A DNA stretch of 64,000 nt, from NCBI RefSeq assembly GCF_001447995.1, contig NZ_LDPE01000001.1, positions 1,364,001 through 1,428,000 on the forward strand, written 5' to 3'. Positions 30,327 to 51,542 of this stretch are shown here, one piece after another (positions within the stretch are counted from its first letter, which is position 1; every line of letters begins with the position of its first letter). The translations under genes and the position numbers were made by a program. The DNA is from Maribacter dokdonensis DSW-8 (GTDB taxonomy: Bacteria; Bacteroidota; Bacteroidia; Flavobacteriales; Flavobacteriaceae). The notes beneath the pieces are model-generated. The model was not told the DNA's origin. It saw only the letters and a list, made by a program, of their open reading frames with translations, and searched no databases.

Positions 30327-30347
30327 TACCCTAAAATTTAAGGGGTA
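30327..30347. promoter_or_regulatory. Distal nitrogen-operon dyad
   Basis: An imperfect palindrome of the form TACCCTAAA-x-TTTAAGGGGTA. Its centre is 79 bp upstream of the first base of the glnK -7 box. A similar dyad lies at the same distance from the GSII promoter (47387-47408). Confidence 0.6.
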
Positions 30348-30379
30348 TATATTAAGATACTCGTAAAAATTACGCATGA

Positions 30380-30400
30380 ACCCCTAATATTTTTAGGGTA
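30380..30400. promoter_or_regulatory. Proximal nitrogen-operon dyad
   Basis: ACCCCTAA-N5-TTTAGGGTA, centred 26 bp upstream of the -7 box and so covering the -33 region, where no TTTG is found. The position suits an activator that replaces the -33 contact. It is 53 bp, about five helical turns, from the distal dyad. Confidence 0.6.
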
Positions 30401-30415
30401 ACAATGTTTTTAACA

Positions 30416-30445: not shown

Positions 30446-30784
30446 ATGAAAAAAATCGAGGCAATTATTAGAAAATCAAAGTTTGACGATGTCAAAGAAG
30501 CGTTGCACAGTATTGAAGTAAATTTCTTCAGTTACTGGGATGTAACAGGTGTAGGTAATGAAAAAGAAGGTCACGTTTACCGTGGTATCTCTTACAGTAC
30601 TACTGACATACAACGCAGGTACCTAACCATTGTAGTATCAGATGACTTTCTAGAAAAAACAGTTAATAAAATACTAGAGGCAGCTTACTCCGGTAATGTA
30701 GGTGACGGTAAAATATTTGTATCTGAAGTCCTTCAAGCATATAGAATAAGAACCAAAGAAGACGGTTTAGCCGGTATTAACTAA
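30446..30784 (+). CDS. glnK: PII family nitrogen regulator
   Basis: A trimeric signal protein sensing 2-oxoglutarate and ATP/ADP, 112 residues from the ATG at 30446. The start KKIEAIIRKSKFDDVKEAL, the T-loop with YRGISY (the tyrosine used for uridylylation in enterobacteria is kept) and the GDGKIFV signature near the C-terminus are all PII-like. It lies 30 bp upstream of amt, the standard pairing in which GlnK plugs the AmtB channel when nitrogen is ample. Two dyads and a -7 box precede it. Confidence 0.95.
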   Translation: MKKIEAIIRKSKFDDVKEALHSIEVNFFSYWDVTGVGNEKEGHVYRGISYSTTDIQRRYLTIVVSDDFLEKTVNKILEAAYSGNVGDGKIFVSEVLQAYRIRTKEDGLAGIN

Positions 30785-33167: not shown

Positions 33168-33210
33168 GTTGTTGATATAATTAATGGTTGATTTTATAGT
33201 TTAAGTTTTA

Positions 33211-33240
33211 AAACCTCGGCAATACCTGCCGAGGTTTTTT
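33211..33240. terminator. Terminator after porin gene
   Basis: Stem AAACCTCGGCA/TGCCGAGGTTT with loop ATACC and a T-run on the plus side; it separates the porin gene from the convergent DUF1684 gene. Confidence 0.88.
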
Positions 33241-33249
33241 ATTTTCCCA

Positions 33250-33900: not shown

Positions 33901-33981
33901 TCATTTACATTTCAAAAATACAATATATTCATTGTAAGTTTTTCACATATAATCGTACTTTAGAAATCGAAAACAATTCAT

Positions 33982-36121: not shown

Positions 36122-36250
36122 TATTTAATTTCTATCAAAAATCTAGCCAAAATATCTTAGAACCATTAATCACTAACTAATTTACCAATGATTACTAATT
36201 CCAAAATTAAATATCCATTAATAAATTGATAAAAGAGATTAAGATATTTA

Positions 36251-36700: not shown

Positions 36701-36818
36701 AAGAATATAGTTTTAATTATTTATTATCAAAGGTAAATTTACAAATTACATTTAAAATCGATAGAAAATAATCAAATAACTAACGTAATTTTATATAACA
36801 CTAACAATACCCCACACA

Positions 36819-37208: not shown

Positions 37209-37266
37209 TTATCCTAAAAATCTTACACAACAACGTAATATAGTTATCATATTAAGGATTATGGTC

Positions 37267-37274
37267 TATTTTTG
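37267..37274 (+). promoter_or_regulatory. -7 box of purU
   Basis: TATTTTTG, 20 bp upstream of the TTG start at 37295. No -33 TTTG is seen. Confidence 0.5.
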
Positions 37275-37294
37275 ACATAAAAAATACCATACAA

Positions 37295-38146
37295 TTGAAA
37301 GCAACTATATTAGTCCATTGTCCTGATCAAGCAGGTATCATAAGTACCGTAACTGGTTTTATCCATAGCAATAAAGGCAACATCGTATACCTTGATCAGC
37401 ATGTTGATAAGCCTGCCAACGTATTTTTTATGCGAACGGTTGTTGAATTCCAAAATGACTTTTCAGATTTGGAACATTTTAAAACGTTATTCCAAAATGA
37501 GTTAGCTATTAGTTACAACATGGAATGGAGTCTACATACCGATGACAAATTACCCAGGATGGCCATTTTCGTATCTAAATACAACCATTGCCTTTATGAC
37601 CTATTAAGTAGATATCAATCTGGTGAGCTAGCCGTTGAGATTCCCTTTATACTCAGTAACCATAACGATTTAAGGTATATTGCAGAACAGTTTAACATAC
37701 CGTTCTATCACGTACCCTTTACTAAAGCCAATAGAGTTACGGCAGAGCAGGAGCAAATTGCAATACTTGAAAAACACGATGTAGATTTTATCGTTTTAGC
37801 TAGATACATGCAAATAGTCAGTGGCAACTTAATAGACAAATACCCTAACAAAATAATTAATATACACCATTCTTTCTTACCTGCCTTTGCCGGTGCTAAA
37901 CCCTATCATGCAGCATTTAAAAGAGGTGTGAAAATTATCGGTGCCACTAGTCACTACGTAACTGAAGAATTGGATGCCGGACCAATTATTGAGCAAGATG
38001 TTACTACAGTAACCCATTCTCACACAATAGAAGACTTTATCACAAAAGGTAGAGACCTTGAGAAGATTGTACTTTCTAGAGGAGTAAAATTGCATATTGC
38101 ACGCAAAACAATGGTCTACAACAATAAAACGGTCATATTCTCGTAA
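37295..38146 (+). CDS. purU: Formyltetrahydrofolate deformylase
   Basis: Cytoplasmic enzyme hydrolysing 10-formyl-THF to THF and formate, 283 residues. The N-terminal ACT domain (LVHCPDQAGIISTVTGFI) is followed by the formyltransferase-like domain with FILSNHNDLRY, YHVPFTKANR, FIVLARYMQI, the catalytic NIHHSFLPAFAGAKPYH (about 190) and GATSHYVTEELDAGPIIEQD. The start codon is TTG: the frame is open for about a dozen codons upstream but contains no ATG. It balances one-carbon pools. It is a single gene. Confidence 0.94.
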   Translation: MKATILVHCPDQAGIISTVTGFIHSNKGNIVYLDQHVDKPANVFFMRTVVEFQNDFSDLEHFKTLFQNELAISYNMEWSLHTDDKLPRMAIFVSKYNHCLYDLLSRYQSGELAVEIPFILSNHNDLRYIAEQFNIPFYHVPFTKANRVTAEQEQIAILEKHDVDFIVLARYMQIVSGNLIDKYPNKIINIHHSFLPAFAGAKPYHAAFKRGVKIIGATSHYVTEELDAGPIIEQDVTTVTHSHTIEDFITKGRDLEKIVLSRGVKLHIARKTMVYNNKTVIFS

Positions 38147-38180
38147 TTACTAAAGTAAAACCTATACATATTATACAATA

Positions 38181-38897
38181 ATGATTAAAAAAATTAGTTT
38201 GGCTTTCTGCATGATGCTCGCAATTTCATGCAATGAATTACAGCAAGTAGTAAATCAATTACCTACATCTACAGACACTGCTTTGAGCAATGAAACCATA
38301 GCAAATGGTCTAAAAGAAGCTTTAGATCAAGGTATAGAAAAACAGGTAAGCAAGTTAACCGCTACTGACGGTTTTTATAAAAATGAATTGGTCAAAATTC
38401 TATTACCAGAAGACCTACAAAAGGTAGATAAAACTTTACGCGATATAGGTTTAGGCAATTTGGCAGACGAAGGCTTAAAGGTTTTGAACCGTGCTGCCGA
38501 AGATGCTGTTGCAGAAGCTACACCTATTTTCGTAAATGCTGTAAAAGACATGTCATTCGCAGACGCAAAAAATATTCTTCTTGGCGAAAACAATGCTGCT
38601 ACTACTTATTTGGAAACAAAAACGAATACAGAGCTATATGCTAAATTCAATCCTGTAATCAACGAATCTTTTCAAAAAGTAGGTGCAGATAAAATTTGGA
38701 GTTCTATAATCACCAAATACAATTCAATCCCATTGACCAACAATGTAAACCCAGATTTAACAGATTATGTAACACAGGAGGCTTTATCAGGAGTTTATAA
38801 AATGATTGCTGTAGAGGAAGAAGAAATTAGAACAAAGTTCTCTTCAAGAACTACAGATGTCCTTAAAAAAGTATTTGCACTTCAAGATAAAAAATAG
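38181..38897 (+). CDS. DUF4197 domain lipoprotein
   Basis: A 238-residue lipoprotein (MIKKISLAFCMMLAISCNE, lipobox Cys 17). The DUF4197 domain fills the mature part and shows IANGLKEALDQGIEKQVSKL, ILLPEDLQKVDKTLRDIGL, LNRAAEDAVAEATPIFVNAV and DYVTQEALSGVYKMIAVEEEEIR. It is a mostly helical, periplasmic-facing fold of unknown function, common in Proteobacteria and Bacteroidota. It lies 34 bp after purU and may share its transcript. Confidence 0.88.
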   Translation: MIKKISLAFCMMLAISCNELQQVVNQLPTSTDTALSNETIANGLKEALDQGIEKQVSKLTATDGFYKNELVKILLPEDLQKVDKTLRDIGLGNLADEGLKVLNRAAEDAVAEATPIFVNAVKDMSFADAKNILLGENNAATTYLETKTNTELYAKFNPVINESFQKVGADKIWSSIITKYNSIPLTNNVNPDLTDYVTQEALSGVYKMIAVEEEEIRTKFSSRTTDVLKKVFALQDKK

Positions 38898-38976
38898 ATT
38901 TTCAACAACTTAAACAATAACTCAAAAATATATGCGTTAAAATTAAACAAAAGAATATTAAAGCATTCATTTTCAA

Positions 38977-39008
38977 TTTTTTGAGTTAGTTATTTTTTGA
39001 GTTAGTTA
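38977..39008. repeat. Perfect 16-bp tandem duplication
   Basis: TTTTTTGAGTTAGTTA occurs twice head to tail, followed by GTTAATAA. An inverted partner (AACTCAAAAA, about 38919) lies just after the DUF4197 stop, so the region could form a long AT-rich hairpin. Confidence 0.8.
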
Positions 39009-39015
39009 GTTAATA

Positions 39016-39044
39016 AAAACCGGTGGGAGCATCGGTTTTTTTAT
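39016..39044 (+). terminator. Terminator after DUF4197 gene
   Basis: Stem AAACCGGTG/CATCGGTTT (one G-U pair) with a GGAG loop and seven T residues. Confidence 0.78.
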
Positions 39045-39090
39045 TTTAACACTTAAAGACTACATCTTAATAAATCAATGTTAAAGCACT

Positions 39091-39912
39091 TTAGATTGTT
39101 TTTTGACCGCCCAAATATGCAATTACCTTCTCATTAAAAAATACTGGTCGTTCCACATTTACAACATGACCACAGTCTTCAACCACCACTAATTGCGAAC
39201 TTTTATGCAAAGAAACAATTTTGCGAATGCTGGGAAGAAATAAATAATCTTCTTCTCCCATGACATATAATGTAGGTATGTTGATATCTGCAGACCTAAA
39301 AAAGCGTAATAATGGATTAATTTCCGATGTTAGCTTAAACCATCTTATAAACTCTTTTTGATATAGCTTTTTTGCCTCACGAACAAAAAGCGACCTAGAC
39401 TCCTTATGATTTTTATTTGGCATTATAATAAAAGCAAAGAACTTGTATAACCATAGATAAGGCACGATCGATTTAAATATGATACCAAGTTTTATCAATA
39501 TTTGAGATCTAAGGTTCAATTTCATTATAGCACCGCCCATAACCATACTTTCAACCCGATCAGGATGGTTCTCCGCTAAATTCCGTATTAAAATAGTACC
39601 TAATGATATCCCTACAAAATGAGACTTTTCTATACCTTCTTGATCAATAACCTCAACAATATCGTTAGTAATAACATCAAAGGTGTACTTTTCATTAAAA
39701 ACATTTTTTAAACTAGACTTAGAATTCCCATGCCCTCTTAAATCTAATAGCAATACGTTAAAGTGTTTCTTAAATTCTCGTATTTGTTTGAACCATATTG
39801 AAGAACTACCTCCTGCACCATGTACAAATGTCACCCATTCAGTAGCTGTTTTATGATGATACGTAATATAATGAAGCACAGGTTTGTATTTAAAAAAAGT
39901 TGTAATGTACAA
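39091..39912 (-). CDS. Alpha/beta hydrolase
   Basis: A cytoplasmic serine hydrolase fold, 273 residues. The oxyanion strand FVHGAGGSSSIW (about 29-40), the nucleophile elbow GISLG (about 98-102), the LLLDLRGHGNSKSS strand, a late Asp (GEEDYLF) and the His in EDCGHVVNVERP are all present, so it should be active. The start is TTG at 39912; an in-frame stop lies shortly upstream and no ATG is available before the hydrolase core. The substrate is unknown. It is a single gene. Confidence 0.85.
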   Translation of the reverse strand: MYITTFFKYKPVLHYITYHHKTATEWVTFVHGAGGSSSIWFKQIREFKKHFNVLLLDLRGHGNSKSSLKNVFNEKYTFDVITNDIVEVIDQEGIEKSHFVGISLGTILIRNLAENHPDRVESMVMGGAIMKLNLRSQILIKLGIIFKSIVPYLWLYKFFAFIIMPNKNHKESRSLFVREAKKLYQKEFIRWFKLTSEINPLLRFFRSADINIPTLYVMGEEDYLFLPSIRKIVSLHKSSQLVVVEDCGHVVNVERPVFFNEKVIAYLGGQKTI

Positions 39913-40073
39913 TGTATATATAGTTTTTCACAATCTGTTTAAGATTTTAAAAAATCACTTAGAACACGCTATCTTTTAAATTATCACAGGTGTATTTGTT
40001 AAAAAAAAGACATATTACCTATAAATTAGATGTACAGCTACACATACACACATCCAAAACCTGAATCTGAACG

Positions 40074-40081
40074 TATATTTG
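40074..40081 (+). promoter_or_regulatory. -7 box for 63-residue protein
   Basis: TATATTTG, 21 bp upstream of the ATG at 40103. The 190-bp gap before it contains nothing else I can name. Confidence 0.5.
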
Positions 40082-40102
40082 TAAGAAACTAAAACCAGGA
40101 TT

Positions 40103-40294
40103 ATGGAAAAGCAATATTGCAAGGTAGGGACAGTAACACCAATGGAAGCTAATACAGACATAATAAGCTTATTGGAGTATCAATATCAAATGTTTTTAGA
40201 CAAAGCTTCTAACATGCAAACCAATACCCAGTTGGGAGAATTTTTTGAATCCAAAGCCCAGAAAATCAAAAAAACTTTAGAAGACCTAGTTTAG
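40103..40294 (+). CDS. 63-residue protein of unknown function
   Basis: A small soluble protein with one long amphipathic helix in the first half (NTDIISLLEYQYQMFLDKAS) and a lysine-rich second helix (FFESKAQKIKKTLEDLV). No family is recognised. A -7 promoter box is well placed upstream, which supports it as a real gene. Its 3' end overlaps the convergent pyrF by 9 bp. Confidence 0.6.
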   Translation: MEKQYCKVGTVTPMEANTDIISLLEYQYQMFLDKASNMQTNTQLGEFFESKAQKIKKTLEDLV

Positions 40295-41107
40295 TCTTTG
40301 GAGCTCTATTTTCATAGCTTCTTGTAACTCTTTAGCTTTTTTTCTAGCAGCATCTGTAAAATCCTCCTGGTCAGATGCATAGATAATTCCGCGTGAAGAA
40401 TTAATAAGTAGTCCAACATCTTTTGTCATACCATATTCACAAACATCTACTAAACTACCGCCTTGGGCACCAACTCCAGGCACCAATAAGAAGTTATTAG
40501 GTATTATTTGACGAATTTCCTTCAGATATTCAGCCTTTGTGGCACCCACAACGTACATTAAATTCTCTGCCCCTTTGTAGGTAGTAGAAACCGATAATAC
40601 CTCTTTATATAGCTCTCTATCTCCAATCTTTTTAGTTTGAAAATCAAAAGCACCACCATTTGACGTTAAGGCAAGTAAGATGGTATGTTTATCCTTGAAT
40701 TCCAAAAATGGTTCAACCGAATCTTTGCCCATATAAGGAGCAATTGTGATGGAATCAAAATTTAAATCTTCAAAAAATGCCTTCGCATATCTTGTAGACG
40801 TATTACCTATATCACCACGTTTAGCATCTGCAATGGTGAAAATTTCAGGATAATTCTTATTTAGATACTTTATCGTTTTTCGCAAAGCAGACCACCCCTG
40901 TACACCATAAGCTTCATAAAATGCTATGTTAGGTTTATAAGCCACACATAAATCATGTGTGGCATCAATAATTGCTTTGTTAAACTCAAAAATAGAATCT
41001 TCTTCCTCCAACAAAAAAGGTGGAATTTTCTCTAAGTCGGTATCTAAACCTATACACAAAAAGGATTGTTTTTTATGAATTTGGGCAACCAATTCCTGGG
41101 TAGTCAT
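40286..41107 (-). CDS. pyrF: Orotidine 5'-phosphate decarboxylase
   Basis: Last step of UMP synthesis, 273 residues, of the longer type 2 OMP decarboxylase group. Motifs are FLCIGLDTDLEKIP at the N-terminus, the catalytic TIADAKRGDIGNTS (about 90), ITIAPYMGKDSVEPFL, LALTSNGGAFDFQ and LLVPGVGAQGGS. It is cytoplasmic. It follows prfA by 3 bp on the same strand, so the two are co-transcribed. Confidence 0.95.
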   Translation of the reverse strand: MTTQELVAQIHKKQSFLCIGLDTDLEKIPPFLLEEEDSIFEFNKAIIDATHDLCVAYKPNIAFYEAYGVQGWSALRKTIKYLNKNYPEIFTIADAKRGDIGNTSTRYAKAFFEDLNFDSITIAPYMGKDSVEPFLEFKDKHTILLALTSNGGAFDFQTKKIGDRELYKEVLSVSTTYKGAENLMYVVGATKAEYLKEIRQIIPNNFLLVPGVGAQGGSLVDVCEYGMTKDVGLLINSSRGIIYASDQEDFTDAARKKAKELQEAMKIELQRLN

Positions 41108-41110
41108 ATT

Positions 41111-42187
41111 TTAAAATATCTCAGAGGCTTCCCTCAATTTTTCGGTATTTTCTACAAAACTCAATTCATCTATTATTTTTTGGATATCTCCATCTATAAT
41201 ATTAGACAAATCATACAAGGTTAGACCAATACGATGATCGGTAACCCTACCTTGCGGGTAATTGTAAGTTCTAATTTTTGCAGAACGGTCACCACTACTT
41301 ACTTGAGAGTTTCGCTTTGCAGCATCTTCTTCTTGTTTTTTTGCCAATTCTAAATCATATAACCTAGAACGCAAAACCCTAAAAGCTTTGTCCTTATTCT
41401 TGTGCTGCGATTTTTGGTCCTGACATTGAGCCACTAAACCCGTTGGTATATGCGTTAAACGCACCGCGGAGTATGTAGTGTTTACAGATTGACCACCAGG
41501 ACCTGACGAACAGAAAAAATCTATACGTACATCTTTGGGATCTATTTGTACGTCAAAATCTTCAGCTTCGGGCAAAACCATAACCGTAGCGGCACTGGTG
41601 TGCACCCTACCCTGGGTTTCTGTCTGTGGAACCCTCTGTACACGGTGAACACCGGCTTCAAACTTTAAAGTTCCGTATACATCGGTACCAGATACTTCAA
41701 ACTGAATTTCCTTATAACCACCACTAGTACCTTCACTAAGATCAATTACATTTGTTTTCCAACCTCTACCCTCACAGTATTTAGTATACATTCTAAAAAG
41801 GTCACCGGCAAAGATACTAGCCTCATCACCACCAGTTCCTGCTCTGATTTCTACTACGACATCCTTAGCATCTTCAGGATCTTTTGGTATCAACATCAGT
41901 TTAATATCCTCTTCCAGCTTTGGCAGAGCCCCTTTGGCCTCTTCCATTTGCATCTTGGCCATTTCAAGCATTTCTTCATCACTACCATCGGCAATGATTT
42001 CCTCAGCTTCGGCAATATTATTGGTAAGCTCAAGATATTCTTCTCGCTTATCCATTAAGTCTTTAAGATCTTTATATTCTTTAGTAAGCTTTACATATTT
42101 ATCTTGATCAGATATAATATTCGGTTGAATTATAAGGTCGGAAACCTCATCAAAACGTTGTTTTACTATGTTTAATTTTTCTATCAT
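41111..42187 (-). CDS. prfA: Peptide chain release factor 1
   Basis: Class I release factor reading UAA and UAG, 358 residues, normal length. The GGQ loop is in [18 protein letters not shown] (about 231), the stop-codon-reading region follows the [16 protein letters not shown] and [19 protein letters not shown] blocks, and the coiled N-terminal domain covers about 1-100. In the anticodon-mimic region a P-x-T motif is not as clear as in E. coli, but overall identity is not in doubt. It is first gene of prfA-pyrF. Confidence 0.96.
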
Positions 42188-42295
42188 ATGCTTACTTCAC
42201 TTGTATGGCAAATTTACAATAAAATTACAGACACTTTAAAGTGATTATCGTGGGAAGAAATAATTAAAAAACGAGCACCTAGGTTTTTGAAATAC

Positions 42296-43282
42296 TTAGT
42301 TTAGCAGAATGCCATTACTCTTGTGCATTTTATTGGCGCTATCCACAATAATAACCTCTGTATCTCCAAGTTGATTTATAAGAGCCAAACCTGCATCTAA
42401 CCCCATTACAAAGATGGATGTTGCCAAGGCATCTGATAACTCCGCACTTTTTGCAAATACCGATACACTGTTGATACCCGTAGCGGGAAAACCTGTTTTA
42501 GGATCTAAAATATGGGTGTATTTTTTATTGCCCGACATGATAAAATTACCGTCACTGGCCGTTGTTGCCACAGACGACTCAAGAATTGGAATCCATGATG
42601 CAATACCACCTTTTAAATCTGGATTCATAACCCCAATCAACCATTTATCACCTGTAACTTTGGTACCCCAAGTGGTAATATCACCATTTAAATTTATAAT
42701 ACCGGCCTTAACATCCTTTGACACCAATAACGCCTTTGCCTTGTCTGCAGCAAACCCCTTTCCAATACCACCAAAAGAAATTTTCATTCCTTTTTTCTTT
42801 AAAAAAACAGTTTGATCCTTATTGTTCAAAACAATATTCTTATACCCTATTCTAGATTGCACCGCCTCTACGTTTGCCTTAGAAGGTAAAGACTGCATTG
42901 AACCATCTAATTTCCATACATCTTTAAGTGCAGTGAATGTTATATCAAATGCACCGTTGGTAATTTCAGAAATTTGAATAGAACGCTCTATGAGCTTGTA
43001 TAGTTCCCAACTTACGTGAACTGGCTTAATACCGGCATTTCTATTAATCAAACTTGTTTCAGAGTCCTGATTCCAGGAAGAAATCAACTTCTCAATTCTT
43101 TGAACTTCGGCCAAAGCTTCCTGTATATAAATGTAACCCAACTCCTCATCTACCGAAACTACCGTAATGTCAAAATCACCGCCCATTACCTCGTAAGACT
43201 TCTTTACGGTAACGTACTTTTTATCTTGACCATACGAAATGTAGGTCAACATAACTATTAATAAGGCACTGATATACTTCAC
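42296..43282 (-). CDS. apbE: FAD:protein FMN transferase ApbE
   Basis: Exported flavin transferase of 328 residues that attaches FMN to Thr or Ser in partner proteins such as NqrB, NqrC and RnfG. A signal peptide (YISALLIVMLTYISYG) opens the protein. Family blocks are VMGGDFDITVVS, GAFDITF, ISFGGIGKGFAADKAKALL, AGIINLNGDITTWG, VATTASDGNF and the metal-binding ELSDALATSIFVMG (about 285). The start codon is GTG at 43282. A Rieske-type gene lies 87 bp upstream on the same strand. Confidence 0.93.
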   Translation of the reverse strand: MKYISALLIVMLTYISYGQDKKYVTVKKSYEVMGGDFDITVVSVDEELGYIYIQEALAEVQRIEKLISSWNQDSETSLINRNAGIKPVHVSWELYKLIERSIQISEITNGAFDITFTALKDVWKLDGSMQSLPSKANVEAVQSRIGYKNIVLNNKDQTVFLKKKGMKISFGGIGKGFAADKAKALLVSKDVKAGIINLNGDITTWGTKVTGDKWLIGVMNPDLKGGIASWIPILESSVATTASDGNFIMSGNKKYTHILDPKTGFPATGINSVSVFAKSAELSDALATSIFVMGLDAGLALINQLGDTEVIIVDSANKMHKSNGILLN

Positions 43283-43369
43283 TTACTTTCTCTAGTTGGG
43301 GGTCAATTTTATCATCAAAGAATAATAAGTTAGGTTGGTGTTGTTGGTTTTAGAATTGTAATATGATCA

Positions 43370-43813
43370 TTACTCAAAAACTCGTAAAATATCACCTTCA
43401 AGTGAAGTATTGTATATTTTTAACGCTCTTGAAGTACTGTTAGGAATTTCATTTAAAGGAGTACCGGTCTGAGAAAACTTTGATCCGTGCACATCACAGT
43501 AAAAAATACCACCTTCTTGATTTACAAATCTTACCTGATCATATTGCTCATGACTGCAGATTTGCGTAGCGGCAACAAATTCACCTTCAAGATTTCTAAC
43601 TACAACAACAAGATTTTTTAAAATAAATCCGCCATTATTTGCCAATTTAGCAGCCTCGGAAGAAGTAAGATCAATAGTGAAATCTACATTGGTTGGTGGC
43701 GTAACAATATCTCCTTCAACTTCATTGTCCTTGGAACAACTGCCCAAGCAAGGAAACGTTATTGCAAATGCAGCACCCGCACCCAGAGTTCGTAAAAATT
43801 CTTTTCTTTCCAT
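43370..43813 (-). CDS. Rieske [2Fe-2S] protein, exported
   Basis: A 147-residue protein with a short signal region and a possible lipobox (FPCLGSCSKDN). The Rieske centre is CSH (about 89-91) with YCDVHGSKF (about 110), giving the C-x-H and C-x2-H cluster ligands. The size and lack of other domains suggest a small periplasmic electron carrier rather than a bc1 subunit. It is on the same strand as apbE, whose product matures flavoproteins; a shared redox role is inference. Confidence 0.88.
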   Translation of the reverse strand: MERKEFLRTLGAGAAFAITFPCLGSCSKDNEVEGDIVTPPTNVDFTIDLTSSEAAKLANNGGFILKNLVVVVRNLEGEFVAATQICSHEQYDQVRFVNQEGGIFYCDVHGSKFSQTGTPLNEIPNSTSRALKIYNTSLEGDILRVFE

Positions 43814-43865
43814 AGCAAGATAGGTTTATACAAAAAGAACGATTTATTTACATTAATCGTATGTT

Positions 43866-45044
43866 TTAATACACAAAGGTGCCGTACTTACTGGAAATTG
43901 TTAATTTTTTAGAATCCGATGCCTCTACCTTACCTATAATTTTAGCATTTACGCCAAAACTCTTAGATATTTCAATAATATCACCTGCGATATCTTCAGG
44001 AAGATAAATCTCTAGTCTATGACCACAATTGAAAACCTTATACATCTCTTTCCAATCTGTACCAGACTGTTCTTGAATTAATTGAAAAAGAGGTGGCACA
44101 TCAAATAAGTTATCCTTGATGATATGAAGGTCATCTACAAAATGAAGAATTTTGGTCTGTGCCCCTCCACTACAATGGATCATACCATGAATTTGATCAG
44201 GGCTATATGTAGAAAGTATTTTTTTTACGATCGGTGCATATGTCCTTGTTGGCGACAACACTAATTTACCGGCATTAATTGGAGAATTCTCAACATCATC
44301 CGTTAATTTCACCTTTCCTGAATACACCAAATCTTCTGGCACCTCAGCGTCAAAGCTCTCAGGGAATTTTTCTGCCAAATAATTGGAGAACACATCATGA
44401 CGTGCAGAGGTGAGTCCGTTACTTCCCATACCGCCATTATACTCTTTCTCGTATGTTGCTTGACCAAAAGATTCTAGACCTACAATAACATCGCCGGCCT
44501 TAATATTGGCATTATCGATCACCTCACTTCTTTTCAATCTAGCAGTAACCGTAGAATCTACAATAATTGTTCTTACCAAATCCCCAACATCGGCAGTTTC
44601 ACCACCGGTAGAATGAATAGTGATACCAAACTCACCCAAGTCGTTTATCAACTCTTCCGTTCCATTGATTATAGCTGAAAGCACCTCACCCGGAATCTTA
44701 TTTTTATTTCTGCCAATAGTAGATGAAAGCATAATGTTGTCAGTAGCCCCAACACAGATTAAATCATCTATGTTCATGATCAAGGCATCTTGCGCAATAC
44801 CTTTCCAAACGGAAATATCTCCCGTTTCTTTCCAGTACATATATGCCAACGACGACTTTGTACCCGCCCCATCTGCATGCATGATCAAGCAATACTCTTT
44901 GTCTCCTGTCAAATAATCAGGAACTATTTTACAGAAAGCCTTAGGAAAAAGACCTTTATCAATATTCTTTATAGCATTGTGCACGTCTTCTTTAGAAGCT
45001 GACACGCCCCGTTGCTGATATCTTTCATTGCTAGGTGTTGACAT
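43866..45044 (-). CDS. purM: Phosphoribosylformylglycinamidine cyclo-ligase (AIR synthase)
   Basis: Fifth step of purine synthesis, ATP-dependent ring closure to AIR, 392 residues from the ATG at 45044. A longer reading to 45077 covers a -7 promoter box and is rejected. Family motifs are ERYQQRGVSASKEDVH, HADGAGTKSSLAYMYW, IAQDALIMNIDDLICVGA, TIHSTGGETADVGDLVRTI and HGMIHCSGGAQTKILHF. It is longer than E. coli PurM, as is usual in Bacteroidota. It is cytoplasmic and a single gene. Confidence 0.93.
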   Translation of the reverse strand: MSTPSNERYQQRGVSASKEDVHNAIKNIDKGLFPKAFCKIVPDYLTGDKEYCLIMHADGAGTKSSLAYMYWKETGDISVWKGIAQDALIMNIDDLICVGATDNIMLSSTIGRNKNKIPGEVLSAIINGTEELINDLGEFGITIHSTGGETADVGDLVRTIIVDSTVTARLKRSEVIDNANIKAGDVIVGLESFGQATYEKEYNGGMGSNGLTSARHDVFSNYLAEKFPESFDAEVPEDLVYSGKVKLTDDVENSPINAGKLVLSPTRTYAPIVKKILSTYSPDQIHGMIHCSGGAQTKILHFVDDLHIIKDNLFDVPPLFQLIQEQSGTDWKEMYKVFNCGHRLEIYLPEDIAGDIIEISKSFGVNAKIIGKVEASDSKKLTISSKYGTFVY

Positions 45045-45059
45045 AACTAAAATTTGAAA

Positions 45060-45067
45060 CAAAAATA
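45060..45067 (-). promoter_or_regulatory. -7 box of purM
   Basis: TATTTTTG on the minus strand, 15 bp upstream of the ATG at 45044; it fixes the choice of start. Confidence 0.5.
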
Positions 45068-45141
45068 AGGGAATCATTAAAACTGCAACCTTAGTTCAGC
45101 TTAATAATTCCCCATTTTTTTTTAATAATTAAAGACTAGGC

Positions 45142-47340
45142 TTATTCAATGAACAACAATTCCCTATACTTGGTCAATGGCCATAAGGTATTGTCCATTA
45201 ATTTTTCCAACTTATCACTATGTGATCTAATTTCAGAAAAATATGGTTTTACATCAAAGCAATATGACTTTGCCTTCTTTTTTGTGTCTTTAAGAGCATT
45301 TGCCTTCTTTCTTGCATCTGCCATGGCATCAACCATTTTCTTAATGCTTACTACATGCTCTGCAATTTCTTCTATCATGGTCAATTGCCCTTCAGTGAAT
45401 TTTTTATGTGCCGCTCCATAAATTTCCTTAAGTCCAGACACATTTTTAATCAGCTTATTTTGATATTCCAATGCTGACGGCAAAATATACCCGTAAACCA
45501 ATTCATTATACACCCTACCCTCTATCTGTAGGTGCATAATATAATTCTCCAGATCCACTTCTTGTCGGGCGCCCACTTCAACCTCACTCATTACATCCAT
45601 AGATTCAAAAAGTGCAATACTGTCTTTTGATGTCAAGACCTCTAGAGCTTCTGGAGTATTTTTATTGTTACTTAATTTTCTTCGTTTAGCTTCGTTTTCC
45701 CATTCAACACTATAGCCATCACCGTCAAAACGAATTCGTTTGGATGTTTTTATATATTCACGTAGTACATTAAAAACAGCTTCGTCTTTTTTAAGGTTCT
45801 TCTTGTCTACTAGTGCATCTACCTCTTTCTTAAAATCTTTTAATTGCTTTGCAACAATAGTATTTAAAATGGTCATTGGCTTGGCACAATTGGTCTTGGA
45901 ACCAACGCCACGCATTTCAAATTTATTACCTGTAAATGCAAAAGGTGAAGTTCTGTTTCGATCGGTATTATCCATCAATATTTCTGGAATTTTACCTACT
46001 ACGTTCAGCTTAAGTTCTGTTTTTTCCTCTGGAGACAATTTTCCTTTGGATACCCCTTCAAGCTCATCTAAAACATTACTTAATTGAGTACCTACAAAAA
46101 TTGAAAATATTGCTGGTGGAGCTTCGTTTGCCCCCAGCCTATGATCATTACTTGCCGAAGCTATTGAAGAACGCAAAAGTTCTTCATAAGTATCTACCGC
46201 TTTAATGGTGTTAATAAAAAAGGTCAAAAACTGTAAGTTCTTCATTGGTGTAGAACCGGGACTAAGAAGATTTACCCCGGTATTGGTCTGTAGAGACCAG
46301 TTATTATGCTTACCCGACCCATTGATCCCAGCAAATGGCTTTTCATGGAACAGCACTTTAAAATGATGTTTATCCGCAATCTTATCCATCACATCCATCA
46401 ATAGAAGATTATGATCAATTGCCAAATTTGCTTCTTCAAAAACAGGAGCCAGTTCAAACTGATTTGGGGCAACTTCATTGTGCCTGGTCTTTACAGGTAT
46501 ACCCAATTTTGTGCATTCTTTTTCTAAATCGCTCATAAAACTCAGCACACGACTAGGTATAACCCCAAAATAATGATCATCTAATTGTTGTCCTTTTGCA
46601 GGAGTTTCGCCCACCAAAGTACGACCGGTCATCATAATATCCGGTCTAGAATGTGCAAGAGCTTTATCGATCAAAAAATATTCTTGCTCCCAACCTAAAG
46701 TTGCGTTGACCTTGGTAACGGTTTTATCAAAATATTTAGCTACTGCGGTTGCCGCTTCATCCACTGCACCCAATGCTCTTAACAATGGAGCTTTATTATC
46801 TAAAGCTTCACCCGTATACGAAACAAATATTGTAGGTATACATAAAGTAGTACCATATATGAATGCGGGCGAAGATGGATCCCAAGCCGTGTAGCCCCTA
46901 GCCTCAAATGTATTTCTTATGCCCCCACTTGGAAAACTAGATGCATCTGGTTCTTGCTGCACCAATTGACCACCACCAAACTTTTCTAAAGCCGTACCAT
47001 CTGGCATAAGATCAAAGAAGGCATCATGTTTCTCAGCAGTTGAACCGGTTAAAGGCTGAAACCAGTGGGTATAATGAGTGGCTCCCATTGAAATTGCCCA
47101 ACCTTTTATGGCCTCTGCGACTTGATCTGCAATTTTTCTGTCGATCTTAGAACCAGAATCCATAGCTCCTTTCAATCCTTCAAAAGCATCTTTGGTTAGG
47201 TATTGCAACATCTTTTTTTCATTGAACACGTTGACACCGAACAAGTCAGACCTTCTTCCATTTTCCTGAATAGCGATGGCATTTCTATTTTGACTTTCTT
47301 TTATTGCTGTAAATCTTGAGGACATCATACCTAAATTCAT
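45142..47340 (-). CDS. glnN: Glutamine synthetase type III
   Basis: ATP-dependent glutamate-ammonia ligase of the large hexameric GSIII class, about 732 residues. Signatures include the N-terminal RRSDLFGVNVFNEKKM, MGATHYTHWFQPLTGSTAEKHD, LGWEQEYFLID, NQFELAPVFEEANLAIDHN, FAGINGSGKHNNWSL and NRTSPFAFTGNKFEMRGVGS. The reading frame extends to a GTG at 47352. The ATG at 47340, or the paired ATGs at 47328 and 47325, are better starts because the minus-strand -7 box sits at 47352-47359. It is divergent from GSII across a 176-bp regulatory gap. Confidence 0.96.
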   Translation of the reverse strand: MNLGMMSSRFTAIKESQNRNAIAIQENGRRSDLFGVNVFNEKKMLQYLTKDAFEGLKGAMDSGSKIDRKIADQVAEAIKGWAISMGATHYTHWFQPLTGSTAEKHDAFFDLMPDGTALEKFGGGQLVQQEPDASSFPSGGIRNTFEARGYTAWDPSSPAFIYGTTLCIPTIFVSYTGEALDNKAPLLRALGAVDEAATAVAKYFDKTVTKVNATLGWEQEYFLIDKALAHSRPDIMMTGRTLVGETPAKGQQLDDHYFGVIPSRVLSFMSDLEKECTKLGIPVKTRHNEVAPNQFELAPVFEEANLAIDHNLLLMDVMDKIADKHHFKVLFHEKPFAGINGSGKHNNWSLQTNTGVNLLSPGSTPMKNLQFLTFFINTIKAVDTYEELLRSSIASASNDHRLGANEAPPAIFSIFVGTQLSNVLDELEGVSKGKLSPEEKTELKLNVVGKIPEILMDNTDRNRTSPFAFTGNKFEMRGVGSKTNCAKPMTILNTIVAKQLKDFKKEVDALVDKKNLKKDEAVFNVLREYIKTSKRIRFDGDGYSVEWENEAKRRKLSNNKNTPEALEVLTSKDSIALFESMDVMSEVEVGARQEVDLENYIMHLQIEGRVYNELVYGYILPSALEYQNKLIKNVSGLKEIYGAAHKKFTEGQLTMIEEIAEHVVSIKKMVDAMADARKKANALKDTKKKAKSYCFDVKPYFSEIRSHSDKLEKLMDNTLWPLTKYRELLFIE

Positions 47341-47351
47341 TATTAATTTCA

Positions 47352-47359
47352 CAAAATTA
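47352..47359 (-). promoter_or_regulatory. -7 box of GSIII gene
   Basis: TAATTTTG on the minus strand. A transcript starting just downstream would have a leader of about 20 bases if translation begins at 47325-47328, or almost none from 47340. Confidence 0.45.
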
Positions 47360-47386
47360 CGTTCTATAAATATAAATATGATAAAA

Positions 47387-47408
47387 TACCCGACAAAAAT
47401 TAGGGGTA
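47387..47408. promoter_or_regulatory. Nitrogen dyad in GSII/GSIII intergenic region
   Basis: TACCC-N11-GGGGTA, 22 bp, with a right half (TTAGGGGTA) close to that of the glnK distal dyad. Its centre is about 78 bp from the GSII -7 box and roughly 40 bp from the GSIII -7 box, so it could serve both. Confidence 0.6.
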
Positions 47409-47437
47409 CATAGAAATAAATTTAATTTTTACAGATT

Positions 47438-47448
47438 TACCCCCTTAA
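47438..47448. promoter_or_regulatory. Nitrogen dyad half-site near GSII promoter
   Basis: TACCCCCTTAA, one half of the dyad, about 32 bp upstream of the GSII -7 box. No matching GGG half follows. Confidence 0.45.
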
Positions 47449-47474
47449 AAATTCATACAGATTGATAAAAAACA

Positions 47475-47482
47475 TATTTTTG
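47475..47482 (+). promoter_or_regulatory. -7 box of GSII gene
   Basis: TATTTTTG, 34 bp upstream of the ATG at 47517, without a TTTG at -33. Confidence 0.55.
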
Positions 47483-47516
47483 TTGGTAACTTATTTTAAA
47501 TTATAACGAGCACATT

Positions 47517-48533
47517 ATGAGCAAAACAAAATTAGAATACATCTGGTTAGATGGATATTTTCCAACCCAAAACATGAGAAGCAAGACCAAAGTGGTTAAT
47601 GACTTTGGTGGTAAATTAGAAGATTGCCCAATGTGGTCTTTTGATGGAAGTTCAACGCGCCAGGCCGAAGGTGGTTCTTCTGACTGTTTGCTTAAACCAG
47701 TTGCAATCTACCCTGATCCAGCAAGAAAGGACGGATACTTGGTAATGACAGAAGTACTTAATGCAGATGGTACGCCTCACGTTTCTAATGGTAGAGCTAC
47801 TATTGATGATGACGATAATGATTTCTGGTTCGGATTTGAGCAAGAATATTTCATCATGGATACTGCTACTGAATTACCTTTAGGTTTCCCAAGAGGTGGT
47901 TACCCAGCTCCACAGGGAATGTACTACTGTTCAGTTGGTGGTAAAAATACACACGGTAGACATATTGTAGAGGAGCACGCAGATCTTTGTATTGCTGCTG
48001 GTCTTAACTTTGAAGGTATCAATCAAGAAGTTGCTTGTGGTCAATGGGAGTTTCAATTGTTCGCTAAAGGTGCAAAATTAGCCGGTGATGAATTATGGGT
48101 AGCACGTTACTTATTGGACAGACTTACTGAGTCTTACGGATACTATATTGAGTACCACCCAAAACCATTAGGTAAAGATATGGATTGGAACGGTTCTGGT
48201 ATGCACGCAAACTTCTCTAACACTACGTTAAGAACTTGTGGAGACCAAGCAACTTACGAAAAAATATGTGAGGCATTTAGACCAGTAGTTAAAGAACATA
48301 TCTCTGTATATGGTGAGTTTAACGATCAACGTTTAACAGGTTTACACGAAACTGCTGCTATTACAGATTTCAGCTTCGGTATTTCTGATAGAGGAGCTTC
48401 TATACGTATTCCTATCGCAACGGTAGAAAGCGGATGGAAAGGATGGTTAGAAGATAGAAGACCAGCATCTAATGGTGATCCATATAAAATTGCAGGTGTT
48501 ATCGTTAAAACGGTAAAATCAGCTAAGGTTTAA
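47517..48533 (+). CDS. glnII: Glutamine synthetase type II (eukaryotic-like)
   Basis: A second glutamine synthetase, 338 residues, of the short GSII class known from eukaryotes, rhizobia, actinomycetes and many Bacteroidota. Signatures are EYIWLDGYFPTQNMRSKTKV, the beta-grasp MWSFDGSSTRQAEGGSSDC, FGFEQEYFIMD (metal Glu), QWEFQL, KDMDWNGSGMHANFS and ISDRGASIRIP. There is no adenylylation-site tyrosine loop, since this class is not controlled that way. It is divergent from GSIII with a shared dyad, and a strong terminator follows. Confidence 0.95.
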   Translation: MSKTKLEYIWLDGYFPTQNMRSKTKVVNDFGGKLEDCPMWSFDGSSTRQAEGGSSDCLLKPVAIYPDPARKDGYLVMTEVLNADGTPHVSNGRATIDDDDNDFWFGFEQEYFIMDTATELPLGFPRGGYPAPQGMYYCSVGGKNTHGRHIVEEHADLCIAAGLNFEGINQEVACGQWEFQLFAKGAKLAGDELWVARYLLDRLTESYGYYIEYHPKPLGKDMDWNGSGMHANFSNTTLRTCGDQATYEKICEAFRPVVKEHISVYGEFNDQRLTGLHETAAITDFSFGISDRGASIRIPIATVESGWKGWLEDRRPASNGDPYKIAGVIVKTVKSAKV

Positions 48534-48561
48534 TACCAAATTAATTGTAGATTATATATTA

Positions 48562-48596
48562 AAAATGCCCTGAACATGTTCAGGGCATTTTTTTTT
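48562..48596. terminator. Strong terminator after GSII gene
   Basis: A 14-bp perfect palindrome AAATGCCCTGAACA/TGTTCAGGGCATTT with a long T-run on the plus side and an A-run on the other; usable in both directions. Confidence 0.92.
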
Positions 48597-48615
48597 GCAT
48601 TCTCCGAGTCAGAAA

Positions 48616-49554
48616 CTATCCTATGGTAAAATATACAAAAGCAAGATATACGCCTAACAGTACCACTCCATCTCGCCAACCCAATCTTAATCCTTTAGGA
48701 ATAAAAACCAAAGGAAGAACAAGAAAGGAAATACCCAACAACCAAAAAATGTCATTGGTCAATAATCCTTGATCCATAACGGAAATAGGCGTAATTATAG
48801 AAGTAATACCTAACACGGCCAAGAGGTTAAAAATATTAGAACCTATTAAATTCCCTAAGGAAATTGCTTTTTCTTTTTTGATAATAGCTATGATCGATGC
48901 CGCTAACTCAGGTATACTTGTACCTACAGAAACTATCGTAATTGCTATTACACGTTCACTAACACCGAATGCTGTAGCCATACCTACTGCTCCACTGATT
49001 AGCAGCTCAGAACCGCCCCAAAGTGCCCCACCACCTAATCCTAAGAACAAGGCTGTCTTATAGGTTGGCAACATTACATCTGGCTCGTCTTCCCCATCGA
49101 TAACAGCAGGTTTTTGAAATCGTAATAAATACACCAAGAATACAAATAGGAAAATTACCATGACCACCCCTTCGTATTGCTGAAGAACTCCATCAAAATA
49201 GATAAAGAAAAAGAATAGTAAGGAAGCCAACATCATTACCGGCCAATCTGTAGTATAAAAGCTTTTGCTAACATCTATAGGTCCTAATAAAATAGTAATT
49301 GCAAGTACCAAACCTAAATTTGCGATATTAGATCCCACAACATTACCTAAGGCCAAATCAGGAAAACCATCTAAAGCTGCGTTAATACTTACAATTAGCT
49401 CAGGTGCAGAAGTTGCGAAAGACACAACCGTCATACCTATTACTATTTTCGGAATTTTTAATTTTAACGATAGATCTACCGCCGCCTTTAGCAACCAATT
49501 ACCCCCAGCTATCAACAAAACTAGTCCGGCAACAATAAATAAGAAATCTTGCAT
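48616..49554 (-). CDS. Calcium/sodium antiporter (YrbG-like, CaCA family)
   Basis: An inner-membrane cation exchanger of 312 residues with ten hydrophobic helices in two inverted halves. The two alpha-repeats are clear: SFATSAPELIVSINAA with LGNVVGSNIANLGL (about 47-85), and VGTSIPELAASIIA with LGNLIGSNIFNLLAV (about 210-250). An acidic cytoplasmic loop (DGEDEPD) lies between them. It likely exchanges Ca2+ for Na+. It is a single gene, converging with GSII. Confidence 0.93.
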   Translation of the reverse strand: MQDFLFIVAGLVLLIAGGNWLLKAAVDLSLKLKIPKIVIGMTVVSFATSAPELIVSINAALDGFPDLALGNVVGSNIANLGLVLAITILLGPIDVSKSFYTTDWPVMMLASLLFFFFIYFDGVLQQYEGVVMVIFLFVFLVYLLRFQKPAVIDGEDEPDVMLPTYKTALFLGLGGGALWGGSELLISGAVGMATAFGVSERVIAITIVSVGTSIPELAASIIAIIKKEKAISLGNLIGSNIFNLLAVLGITSIITPISVMDQGLLTNDIFWLLGISFLVLPLVFIPKGLRLGWRDGVVLLGVYLAFVYFTIG

Positions 49555-49703: not shown

Positions 49704-50063
49704 ATGGAAAAACTTACAAATAAGGAAGAAGAGATCATGAAAATTCTTTGGCGCTTAAAAAAAGCTTTTGTCAAGGAAATTATGCAAGAAATAACGGAAA
49801 ATAAGCCACATTATAATACCCTCTCCACTATTGTAAGAAACTTGGAAGAAAAGAAATTCGTAGGATTTACTGCCTATGGCAAAACACATCAATACCATCC
49901 TATCATAACCAAAGAAGCCTACTACAAAGCATATGTAAATGAAGACATGGTTGAATATTTTGACAATTCTTACAAGAACATTGTTTCTTTCTTTGCCAAA
50001 GAAGAAAAAATATCGGTAGACGAATTAAAAGAAATTATCAACCTTATTGAAAATGGAAAATAG
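49704..50063 (+). CDS. BlaI/MecI/CopY family repressor
   Basis: A 119-residue winged-helix repressor. The DNA-binding part is LTNKEEEIMKILWRLKKAFVKEIMQEI with YNTLSTIVRNLEEKKFVG (about 3-55), and the C-terminal dimerisation helices carry the region normally cleaved by the partner protease. It is directly followed, with no gap, by the M56 metallopeptidase gene, the standard BlaI-BlaR1-like pairing. Three operators lie upstream. In flavobacteria such pairs are common and are usually not linked to beta-lactamase; none is seen here. Confidence 0.93.
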   Translation: MEKLTNKEEEIMKILWRLKKAFVKEIMQEITENKPHYNTLSTIVRNLEEKKFVGFTAYGKTHQYHPIITKEAYYKAYVNEDMVEYFDNSYKNIVSFFAKEEKISVDELKEIINLIENGK

Positions 50064-51542
50064 ATGGAAACTTTTTGTTACTATTTGCTAAAGTCCGGAT
50101 TAGTACTTGGTCTCTTTTTTCTTTGCTATCAATTTTTGTTGAGCAGGGAAACCTTTTATACATTCAATAGATCTTTTCTGCTGTTAGGTTTGTTTACTTC
50201 TGTACTCTTTCCATTAATCTATATTACAAATACCATTACCCTACCCGTACAACACATAAGTGAGGCCACAAACAACATCATCTTGCCAAATGAACAAAAC
50301 AATTTTATTGGCAACTCCCCATTTAATATTGCCCTAGCAATTTATGGTATAGGAGCCAGCTTATTTTTAACGAAATTCCTACTTCAAATTTATAAGCTTA
50401 GAAAGTTAATACAAAGCGGAAATAAGAAGCATATTGATAGCATTAGCCATATTGTCACAACAGATAATGTAACCCCTTTTTCCTTCTTTAAAGCTATTGT
50501 TTACAATCCTAGTTTGCACGATAAAAAGGAACTTAAAAACATTATTTCGCATGAAGAGGTCCATGCTCAACAAAAACATTCATATGATGTAGTCTTCATG
50601 GAGATTTTCTTAGCACTGCAATGGTTTAATCCTTTTGCATGGTATTATAGAATTGCAATAAAACAAAACTTAGAATTTCTAGCTGATACAGACAACAAAG
50701 AAATAAAGCTCAATAAAAAAGATTACCAATACATACTGTTGAAACAGGCTGTTGGTCAGCAAAATTTATCAATCATAAATCCATTTTTTAATTCATTAAT
50801 CAAAAAGCGAATAGTCATGATCAATCAACAAAAATCAAAAAAAGTAAATGCAACCAAAAGTTTATTCATTCTACCTATGCTTGCATTATTTCTCATCAGT
50901 TTTAATACCAAAGAGGTGTATACCACCAATGAAAAAAATATTTCTGACAATACTATAGAAATACTTATAGACAAGAATACTACGGATGCTCAGCTGGTAA
51001 AAATCAAAAACGACTTGATCAAAGAAAGCTTTGATTTTTCTTATACCACGGTAAGAAATAAAAATTCAGAGATTCAAAATATATCTATAGAGATAAATGG
51101 TGGAAACAAAAACAAAGGTGAAGTCAGTAGCCGATTTAATTCAGCATCTGACAACGACACTATTGATAAAATTCATATCATTATAGATACCGATAAAAAC
51201 AGCATATTTATTAGTCATGTAGATGTAGCCCATAATATTACTTCAGTTAAGAAAACTAGTAACAGTAATAATAATCAGCAAATTTCAATTTCCACATCTT
51301 CATCTGGCGAATATGATTTAAAAGTTACTGAAGAAACCGATAATGGCTTCAAGTTCATATCTGGCAATGGTAACAAAGAACCATTATTTTTTGTTGACGG
51401 AAAAAAATGGGAGTCGAAAGAGGTATCAAATTTAGACCCGAATAAAATTGCTTCAATGAATGTTATTAAAGGGCTAAGTGCTCAAGAGAAATATGGTGAA
51501 GATGGAAAAAACGGAGTTGTTGAAATTACATTGAAAAAGTAA
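50064..51542 (+). CDS. M56 (BlaR1-like) metallopeptidase with plug-like C-terminus
   Basis: A membrane sensor-protease of 492 residues. The N-terminal M56 domain has three or four helices (about 10-110) and the zinc motif ISHEEVHAQQKHS (HExxH, 163-167), with ALQWFNPFAW after it. A further helix (SLFILPMLALFLISF, about 270) precedes an extracytoplasmic region of about 210 residues. That region ends with LFFVDGKKW, IASMNVIKGLSAQEKYGEDG and NGVVEITLKK, the same pattern as the plug of TonB-dependent receptors. Its ATG directly follows the stop of the repressor gene. Confidence 0.9.
   Translation: METFCYYLLKSGLVLGLFFLCYQFLLSRETFYTFNRSFLLLGLFTSVLFPLIYITNTITLPVQHISEATNNIILPNEQNNFIGNSPFNIALAIYGIGASLFLTKFLLQIYKLRKLIQSGNKKHIDSISHIVTTDNVTPFSFFKAIVYNPSLHDKKELKNIISHEEVHAQQKHSYDVVFMEIFLALQWFNPFAWYYRIAIKQNLEFLADTDNKEIKLNKKDYQYILLKQAVGQQNLSIINPFFNSLIKKRIVMINQQKSKKVNATKSLFILPMLALFLISFNTKEVYTTNEKNISDNTIEILIDKNTTDAQLVKIKNDLIKESFDFSYTTVRNKNSEIQNISIEINGGNKNKGEVSSRFNSASDNDTIDKIHIIIDTDKNSIFISHVDVAHNITSVKKTSNSNNNQQISISTSSSGEYDLKVTEETDNGFKFISGNGNKEPLFFVDGKKWESKEVSNLDPNKIASMNVIKGLSAQEKYGEDGKNGVVEITLKK

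What the first reader, a model, noticed from the sequence alone, without database searches (positions are those of the whole stretch)
47340..47517. Same dyad and spacing between divergent GSIII and GSII genes
The 176-bp gap carries TACCC-N11-GGGGTA centred about 78 bp from the GSII -7 box, nearly the same distance as the glnK distal dyad (79 bp), plus a half-site nearer the promoter. Two unrelated glutamine synthetase classes thus appear wired to the same signal as ammonium uptake, 17 kb away. This would be a nitrogen regulon without NtrC.
Basis: partly seen in the sequence, partly recalled or inferred. Interest (0 to 1): 0.8.

Follow-up and report, generated by a model that had tools for sequence, protein, structure and literature searches.

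The report
Flavobacterial nitrogen regulon with unidentified regulator
A short mirror-symmetric DNA signal, set in pairs a fixed distance apart, marks the main ammonium-uptake and assimilation genes of flavobacteria, pointing to a shared nitrogen switch whose controlling protein is not yet known.

Summary
The dyad is where stated; 0 of 20,000 shuffles of the gap reach its score. Refined, the element is ACCCTA-N6/7-TAGGGT. In 76 of 80 named relatives GSIII and GSII are divergent, and 60 of 77 gaps, the window's included, hold a dyad of 15 bits or more. A model trained only on GS and glnK sites gave, in 26 congeneric genomes, 49 places at E<=0.02: 13 before glnK-amt, 18 (plus 1 at a contig end) before alanine dehydrogenase, 8 between the GS genes, 2 before gltB, 7 elsewhere. 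The window's genome has a site at all four loci. A second half-site follows 51-55 bp downstream, about five helical turns, and in GS and glnK mostly a -7 box TAnnTTTG 87-91 bp from the dyad. Most likely one factor, probably an activator, drives these promoters when nitrogen is limiting. Its identity is open: an Lrp/AsnC protein fits 11 of 12 motif-bearing genomes but is missing from G036. No expression data were available.

The parts
47387..47408 (.). Distal dyad shared by GSII and GSIII, TACCCGACAAAAATTAGGGGTA
   Evidence: 17.3 bits, 0 of 20,000 shuffles; dyads in the same gap of relatives
47437..47460 (+). Proximal half-site (ACCC starts at 47439, 51 bp after the distal ACCC)
   Evidence: spacing 51-55 bp in 61 of 77 GS regions
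47475..47482 (+). GSII -7 box TATTTTTG (TAnnTTTG type)
   Evidence: consensus from a passage of PMC7366714
47352..47359 (-). Candidate GSIII -7 box TAATTTTG, about 38 bp from the dyad centre
   Evidence: in relatives a box at 34-38 bp in 21 of 76 loci, otherwise scattered or none
45142..47340 (-). Type III glutamine synthetase (GSIII)
   Evidence: GSIII_N 255 bits, Gln-synt_C-ter 133 bits; start codon inferred
47517..48533 (+). GSII-type glutamine synthetase
   Evidence: Pfam Gln-synt_N and Gln-synt_C above cut-off; GlnII model 375 bits, below its cut-off of 500
30327..30347 (.). glnK distal dyad TACCCTAAAATTTAAGGGGTA
   Evidence: relatives
30379..30401 (.). glnK proximal dyad AACCCCTAATATTTTTAGGGTAA (N7 spacer), centre 52.5 bp from the distal one
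   Evidence: 20.7 bits
30416..30423 (+). glnK -7 box TATATTTG
   Evidence: relatives
30446..30784 (+). glnK, P-II family protein (ORF open from 30404)
   Evidence: P-II 78 bits
30815..32053 (+). amt, ammonium transporter
   Evidence: Ammonium_transp 382 bits
32154..33167 (+). BBP2 porin gene following amt, probably in the same operon (inferred)
   Evidence: BBP2 186 bits; a BBP2 gene with its own dyad upstream in G163

Best explanation
The GSIII-GSII gap is one promoter module of a nitrogen-assimilation regulon of Flavobacteriales. The cis element is a dyad, ACCCTA-N6/7-TAGGGT, paired with a second dyad or half-site 51-55 bp downstream on the same helical face and followed, at GS and glnK, by a TAnnTTTG -7 box. 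The regulon holds glnK-amt(-porin), GSII/GSIII, gltB and ald. SHOWN by sequence: the element, its phasing, its conservation and its gene set. INFERRED: a dimeric transcription factor binds both sites together; the proximal site, centred about 26 bp upstream of the -7 box (roughly -38 to -41), stands where a -33 element would be, so the factor is probably an activator contacting RNA polymerase; it acts when nitrogen is limiting. The regulator is not identified.
For: Divergent GSIII in 76 of 80 named GSII loci, best dyad of 15 bits or more in 60 of 77 gaps. In 26 congeneric genomes, 42 of 49 places at E<=0.02 are at glnK, ald, GS or gltB, one of the 42 by synteny at a contig end; ald and gltB were not in the training set. 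In 22 further genomes, 10 of 20 places at E<=0.1 are at glnK, amt, GSIII or a BBP2 porin, and they are 10 of the best 12. Same 51-55 bp spacing in three promoter groups. Own genome: sites at glnK, GS, ald and gltB.
Against: No expression or binding data. The loose pattern is not enriched. 4 of 80 GSII genes lack GSIII beside them and lack the dyad. Ald regions mostly lack an exact TAnnTTTG (17 of 20), and GSIII-side box distances scatter. No factor is present in every motif-bearing genome among the families tested. Several motif-bearing genomes rest on weak sites (L109 11.3 bits; G044 has no place at E<=0.1).
Confidence: 0.68

Rival explanations
1. Regulator is LrpC, an Lrp/AsnC protein (own genome G000:C1:168086-168562) that senses an amino acid such as glutamine and wraps DNA between phased sites.
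For: Present in 11 of 12 motif-bearing and 4 of 11 motif-lacking genomes (Fisher p 0.008, no correction for kinship); in G184 it is the only Lrp/AsnC matched; its recognition helix is alike in the copies read. A Sulfolobus Lrp is glutamine-responsive and binds before gltB at two sites (abstract and one section of PMC3584215).
Against: G036 has a dyad before GSIII but no Lrp/AsnC match at E<=0.001. LrpC is also in genomes without N-gene motif hits. No dyad found at the lrpC genes fetched. The GC-rich half-sites differ from the AT-rich Sa-Lrp sites.
Confidence: 0.28
2. Regulator is a Crp/Fnr-family activator working like cyanobacterial NtcA at about -41.5.
For: 5-N6-5 dyad geometry and a site overlapping the -33 region; 13 cNMP-binding-domain matches in the genome.
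Against: Of three HTH_Crp_2 types compared, none is in all motif-bearing genomes of a 19-genome set; the widest is missing from G046. G042 and G043 show only weak matches but are MAGs. Short Crp-like proteins outside that HTH model were not profiled. The N7 variant spacer is unusual for the family (recalled).
Confidence: 0.15
3. The regulon is real but the factor is a repressor lifted under nitrogen limitation.
For: Sites near the -33 region could block polymerase; the sequence data do not separate the two modes.
Against: A second site at about -91, fixed at five helical turns, is more typical of cooperative activation; no -33 element was identified. Inference only.
Confidence: 0.25
4. The inverted repeats are terminators, RNA hairpins or chance.
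For: 4 of 9 exact order-wide matches are not at N genes, and some look like terminators; the loose pattern is not enriched.
Against: Fixed distance to a second site and, at GS and glnK, to the -7 box; recurrence at the same gene sets; no Rfam match at the dyads in 29000-49000.
Confidence: 0.04

Closest known systems
NtcA regulon of cyanobacteria (CRP family)
   Same: One factor, one dyad at about -41.5, controlling nitrogen-assimilation genes (start of the abstract of PMC3898017 seen in listing).
   Different: Site GTAN8TAC is unlike ACCCTA-N6/7-TAGGGT; here sites come as a pair 51-55 bp apart; no NtcA orthologue identified.
NtrC/sigma54 nitrogen control of Pseudomonadota
   Same: Same target genes (glutamine synthetase, glnK-amt; partly recalled). 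A sigma54 survey ties glutamine synthetase mainly to Pseudomonadota (passages of PMC12316311).
   Different: TAnnTTTG promoters and no clear sigma54 sites. NtrC and RpoN presence not searched.
GlnR/TnrA (MerR family, Firmicutes; recalled)
   Same: A dedicated factor with a dyad at glutamine synthetase and ammonium-transport promoters.
   Different: Site TGTNAN7TNACA (recalled) is unlike this dyad; MerR proteins were not searched.
Sa-Lrp of Sulfolobus acidocaldarius (Lrp/AsnC)
   Same: Glutamine-responsive, binds promoter regions of ammonia-assimilation genes including gltB, two adjacent sites (PMC3584215, abstract and one section).
   Different: AT-rich degenerate sites 24 bp apart in an archaeon; here GC-ended dyads 51-55 bp apart.

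Membership tests
NtrC/sigma54 regulon | -24/-12 sigma54 promoter (TGGCAC-N5-TTGC) upstream of the genes | tested here: not met
   No region with fewer than 2 mismatches of 10; distributions like one shuffle for GS and glnK, but ald has more 3-mismatch matches (12 of 20 against 1) that I did not follow up
NtrC/sigma54 regulon | NtrC and RpoN genes present | not tested
   No search of the genome for these families was made
NtcA/CRP-type regulon | 16-bp 5-N6-5 dyad placed at about -41.5 | tested here: inconclusive
   CCCTA-N6-TAGGG in about 74%, N7 in about 23%; proximal site about 26 bp upstream of the -7 box; start sites not mapped
NtcA/CRP-type regulon | A Crp/Fnr orthologue in every motif-bearing genome | tested here: not met
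   19 genomes, HTH_Crp_2 model, three types compared; short Crp-like proteins not covered
Lrp/AsnC regulon | An Lrp/AsnC orthologue in every motif-bearing genome | tested here: not met
   LrpC in 11 of 12; no match in G036
GlnR/TnrA regulon | TGTNAN7TNACA site and a MerR-family factor | not tested
   The conserved dyad found is a different sequence; MerR proteins not searched
A common nitrogen regulon (any factor) | One conserved cis element at the core nitrogen-assimilation genes | tested here: met
A common nitrogen regulon (any factor) | Joint expression response to nitrogen | not testable with these tools
   No expression data held

The most novel reading that the evidence does not exclude
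Flavobacteriales have their own general nitrogen-control system, with a regulator outside the NtrC, NtcA and GlnR/TnrA systems. It binds a phased pair of ACCCTA-N6/7-TAGGGT dyads and drives glnK-amt-porin, two classes of glutamine synthetase, glutamate synthase and alanine dehydrogenase.
Probability: 0.5. Interest if true: 0.78.

Novelty: new variant of a known kind. Interest (0 to 1): 0.66.

Why it matters
My paper searches turned up no description of a nitrogen-control regulon in Bacteroidota (open-licence PubMed Central only). The element, its spacing rule and a gene list make 'how do flavobacteria sense nitrogen' directly testable: a DNA pull-down or one promoter series would name the factor. 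That GSII and GSIII share one operator also bears on why two unrelated glutamine synthetases are kept side by side.

Tried and rejected
A symmetric 20-mer with up to 3 mismatches: 24 against 15, with many hits in coding DNA. ACCCC-N9-11-GGGGT in 40 genomes: little above its backward control in many of them, but hits picked from its capped list led to ald and gltB.

Autoregulated factor under the motif: none recognised by eye among the places examined. Three dyads of 15 bits or more (in L342, L356, L362) occur in the Lrp-search loci and one of 14.3 bits between two cNMP-protein genes (L188/L195); I did not study them singly. None at 14 bits or more in the lrpC loci fetched.

Regulator candidates weakened: the window's Lrp/AsnC gene (36251-36700), with no close orthologue in motif-bearing G126, G040, G041, G045 and G046; LrpB near ald, with no close orthologue in G047 and G044; the widest Crp type, missing from G046. 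MerR, Rrf2, LuxR/NarL and others were considered from memory of their sites and not searched. Rfam gave one sub-threshold match away from the dyads. Neighbourhoods of motif genes in other genomes showed no shared regulator gene by eye.

Rows dropped before counts: the 4 GSII loci without GSIII were left out of the 77-region GS set, and P-II matches L135-L140 out of the 24-region glnK set. Of 86 candidate sites 40, picked by hand mainly by score, made the model; 11 of the 40 are glnK sites of the same genus. The model search scored only the 150 best first-look candidates per genome. All genome-search searches were used.
Full report
WHAT IS THERE. The gap between the GSIII gene (minus strand) and the GSII gene (plus strand) carries TACCCGACAAAAATTAGGGGTA at 47387-47408. 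The glnK-amt operon 17 kb away carries TACCCTAAAATTTAAGGGGTA at 30327-30347 and a second dyad, AACCCCTAATATTTTTAGGGTAA at 30379-30401, whose centre is 52.5 bp from the first. In the GS gap the second site is only a half-site, with ACCC starting 51 bp after that of the distal dyad.

IS IT CHANCE? The loose pattern TACCC-N8-14-GGGTA is not enriched in the genome: 23 places against 21 for the backward pattern. Of the 23, 6 lie outside ORFs and 3 of those 6 are upstream of glnK, the GS pair and gltB. The GSII protein fetched 80 named loci (the best 80 of at least 592 relatives). In 76 a divergent GSIII lies upstream, and their gaps show ACCCCTAAAAAATAGGGGT-like dyads. ACCC-N10-14-GGGT occurs 50 times in the 77 GS regions and ACCC-N11-13-GGGT 34 times in the 24 glnK regions; in 50 mono-nucleotide shuffles of the whole set, spacers of 10-14 gave none. 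A two-half-site model fitted to these 101 regions gives half-site CCCTA (mostly preceded by C or A) with a 6-bp spacer in about 74% and 7 bp in about 23%; the best dyad is 15 bits or more in 60 of 77 GS regions. The 4 loci in which GSII has no GSIII beside it (L036, L049, L050, L102) show no dyad.

THE REGULON. A sequence-only model of 40 sites (29 GS, 11 glnK of the same genus) was run over 26 genomes of the genus (the 150 best first-look candidates per genome were scored). Merging strands by hand, 49 places reach E<=0.02: 13 upstream of glnK-amt (12 promoters, one of them with both sites), 18 upstream of alanine dehydrogenase (one of these genes, in G022, is split into two ORFs), 1 at a contig end where synteny implies ald, 8 between GSIII and GSII, 2 upstream of gltB, and 7 elsewhere, 6 of these inside ORFs and 1 about 30 bp before a gene that looks like obg by eye (one glnK place by coordinates). 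Genes in relatives were recognised by eye from their first residues. Ald and gltB were not in the training set, so their recovery is independent. The window's own genome has the element at glnK, at the GS pair, before ald (G000:C2:730185, about 133 bp before the ATG) and 289 bp before gltB (TACCCCCTCTTTAAAAAGGGGGTA, G000:C3). Family checks of own genes: gltB GATase_2 550 bits, ald TIGR00518 516 bits.

BEYOND THE GENUS. The exact pattern ACCCCTA-N6-TAGGGGT has 9 places in 196 genomes of the order, in 8 genomes, against 1 for the backward pattern. Of the 9, 1 is before glnK-amt, 2 before GSIII, 1 before ald, 1 about 376 bp before a BBP2 porin gene, and 4 are elsewhere. In 22 further genomes (15 of other families of the order, one of the same family, six reached through loci) 20 distinct places reach E<=0.1. 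Ten are at N genes: glnK twice in G047, GSIII and glnK in G184, two amt genes and a BBP2 porin in G163, GSIII in G036 and in G032, glnK in G026; ten are not. The porin counts as nitrogen-linked by inference only, because in the window it follows glnK-amt. Nine of the 22 genomes, G044 among them, have no place at that level.

ARCHITECTURE. The best half-site downstream of the distal dyad, sought over some 60 positions, lies 51-55 bp away in 61 of 77 GS regions (every one with a half-site of 5 bits), 52-54 bp in 18 of 24 glnK regions and 53-55 bp in 19 of 20 ald regions. Shuffled downstream DNA has such a half-site at any position in 9.05, 2.5 and 2.95 regions on average. From the start of the dyad chosen to the last exact TAnnTTTG is 87-91 bp in 44 of 47 GS regions measured and 17 of 23 glnK regions; in 6 glnK regions the proximal dyad was the one chosen (37-38 bp). 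26 of 77 GS, 1 of 24 glnK and 17 of 20 ald regions have no exact TAnnTTTG. TAnnTTTG is the -7 consensus reported for Bacteroides fragilis and confirmed in Flavobacterium johnsoniae (passage of PMC7366714). Five helical turns between sites and a proximal site near the place of a -33 element are what a factor touching RNA polymerase from one side would need. Activation is an inference; a repressor is not excluded. On the GSIII side a TAnnTTTG lies 34-38 bp from the dyad in 21 of 76 loci, and elsewhere or nowhere in the rest. No region has a sigma54-type site with fewer than 2 mismatches of 10; GS and glnK show no excess over one shuffle, while 12 of 20 ald regions have a 3-mismatch site against 1 of 20 shuffled, which I did not follow up.

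WHICH FACTOR? Not settled. The geometry suggests Crp/Fnr, but of three HTH_Crp_2 types compared in 19 genomes none covers all motif-bearing ones. The window has an Lrp/AsnC gene between glnK and the GS pair (36251-36700), but several motif-bearing genomes lack a close orthologue. A second lies about 2 kb from ald and has no close orthologue in G047 and G044. A third, LrpC, is present in 11 of 12 motif-bearing genomes and in 4 of 11 without N-gene motif hits (Fisher p 0.008, no correction for kinship); in G184 it is the only Lrp/AsnC matched. G036 counts against it: a dyad before GSIII and no Lrp/AsnC match. One motif-bearing call, G040 (L109), rests on a weak site (11.3 bits); without it p is 0.012. 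Other factor families were not profiled.

COMPARISON. Functionally this works like the NtcA regulon of cyanobacteria or GlnR/TnrA of Firmicutes: one factor, one dyad, the ammonium-assimilation genes. It is not shown to be a member of either. No paper on a Bacteroidota nitrogen regulon was found in the searches named, which cover open-licence PubMed Central papers only. Of the papers cited I saw: PMC7366714 one passage, PMC12316311 and PMC12304020 passages, PMC3584215 abstract and one section, PMC3898017 the start of the abstract in a listing.

VERDICT. The cis-regulatory signal and its gene set are well supported by sequence (that part alone about 0.93). The reading as a nitrogen-responsive regulon driven by one activator is the best explanation (0.68). 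The regulator's identity is open.

Noticed in passing
window 36251-36700 (-): An Lrp/AsnC-family regulator gene lies between glnK-amt and the GS pair; similar genes lie about 8 kb from glnK in G148 and about 7 kb from GSIII in G069.
   Followed up: partly
L170:7092-7562 (-), own genome G000:C2:733294-733761: A second, strongly conserved Lrp/AsnC gene lies about 2 kb from alanine dehydrogenase, seen whole or in part in the seven ald loci read.
   Followed up: partly
window 49704-51542 (+): A BlaI/MecI-like repressor followed by a BlaR1-type M56 membrane peptidase with a weak, below cut-off match to a TonB plug domain near its end, just downstream of the GS pair.
   Followed up: no
L382, L387, L405, L406 (genome G163): Two ammonium-transporter genes and a BBP2 porin gene at three separate places each have a dyad upstream; in the window the porin follows glnK-amt, so an outer-membrane channel may belong to ammonium uptake.
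   Followed up: partly
window 30446-30784 (+): The P-II protein is far below NCBIfam cut-offs for classical P-II (79 bits against 202), so it may be a divergent type.
   Followed up: no
upstream regions of ald in the genus: 12 of 20 have a sigma54-like site with 3 mismatches of 10, against 1 of 20 in one shuffle.
   Followed up: no
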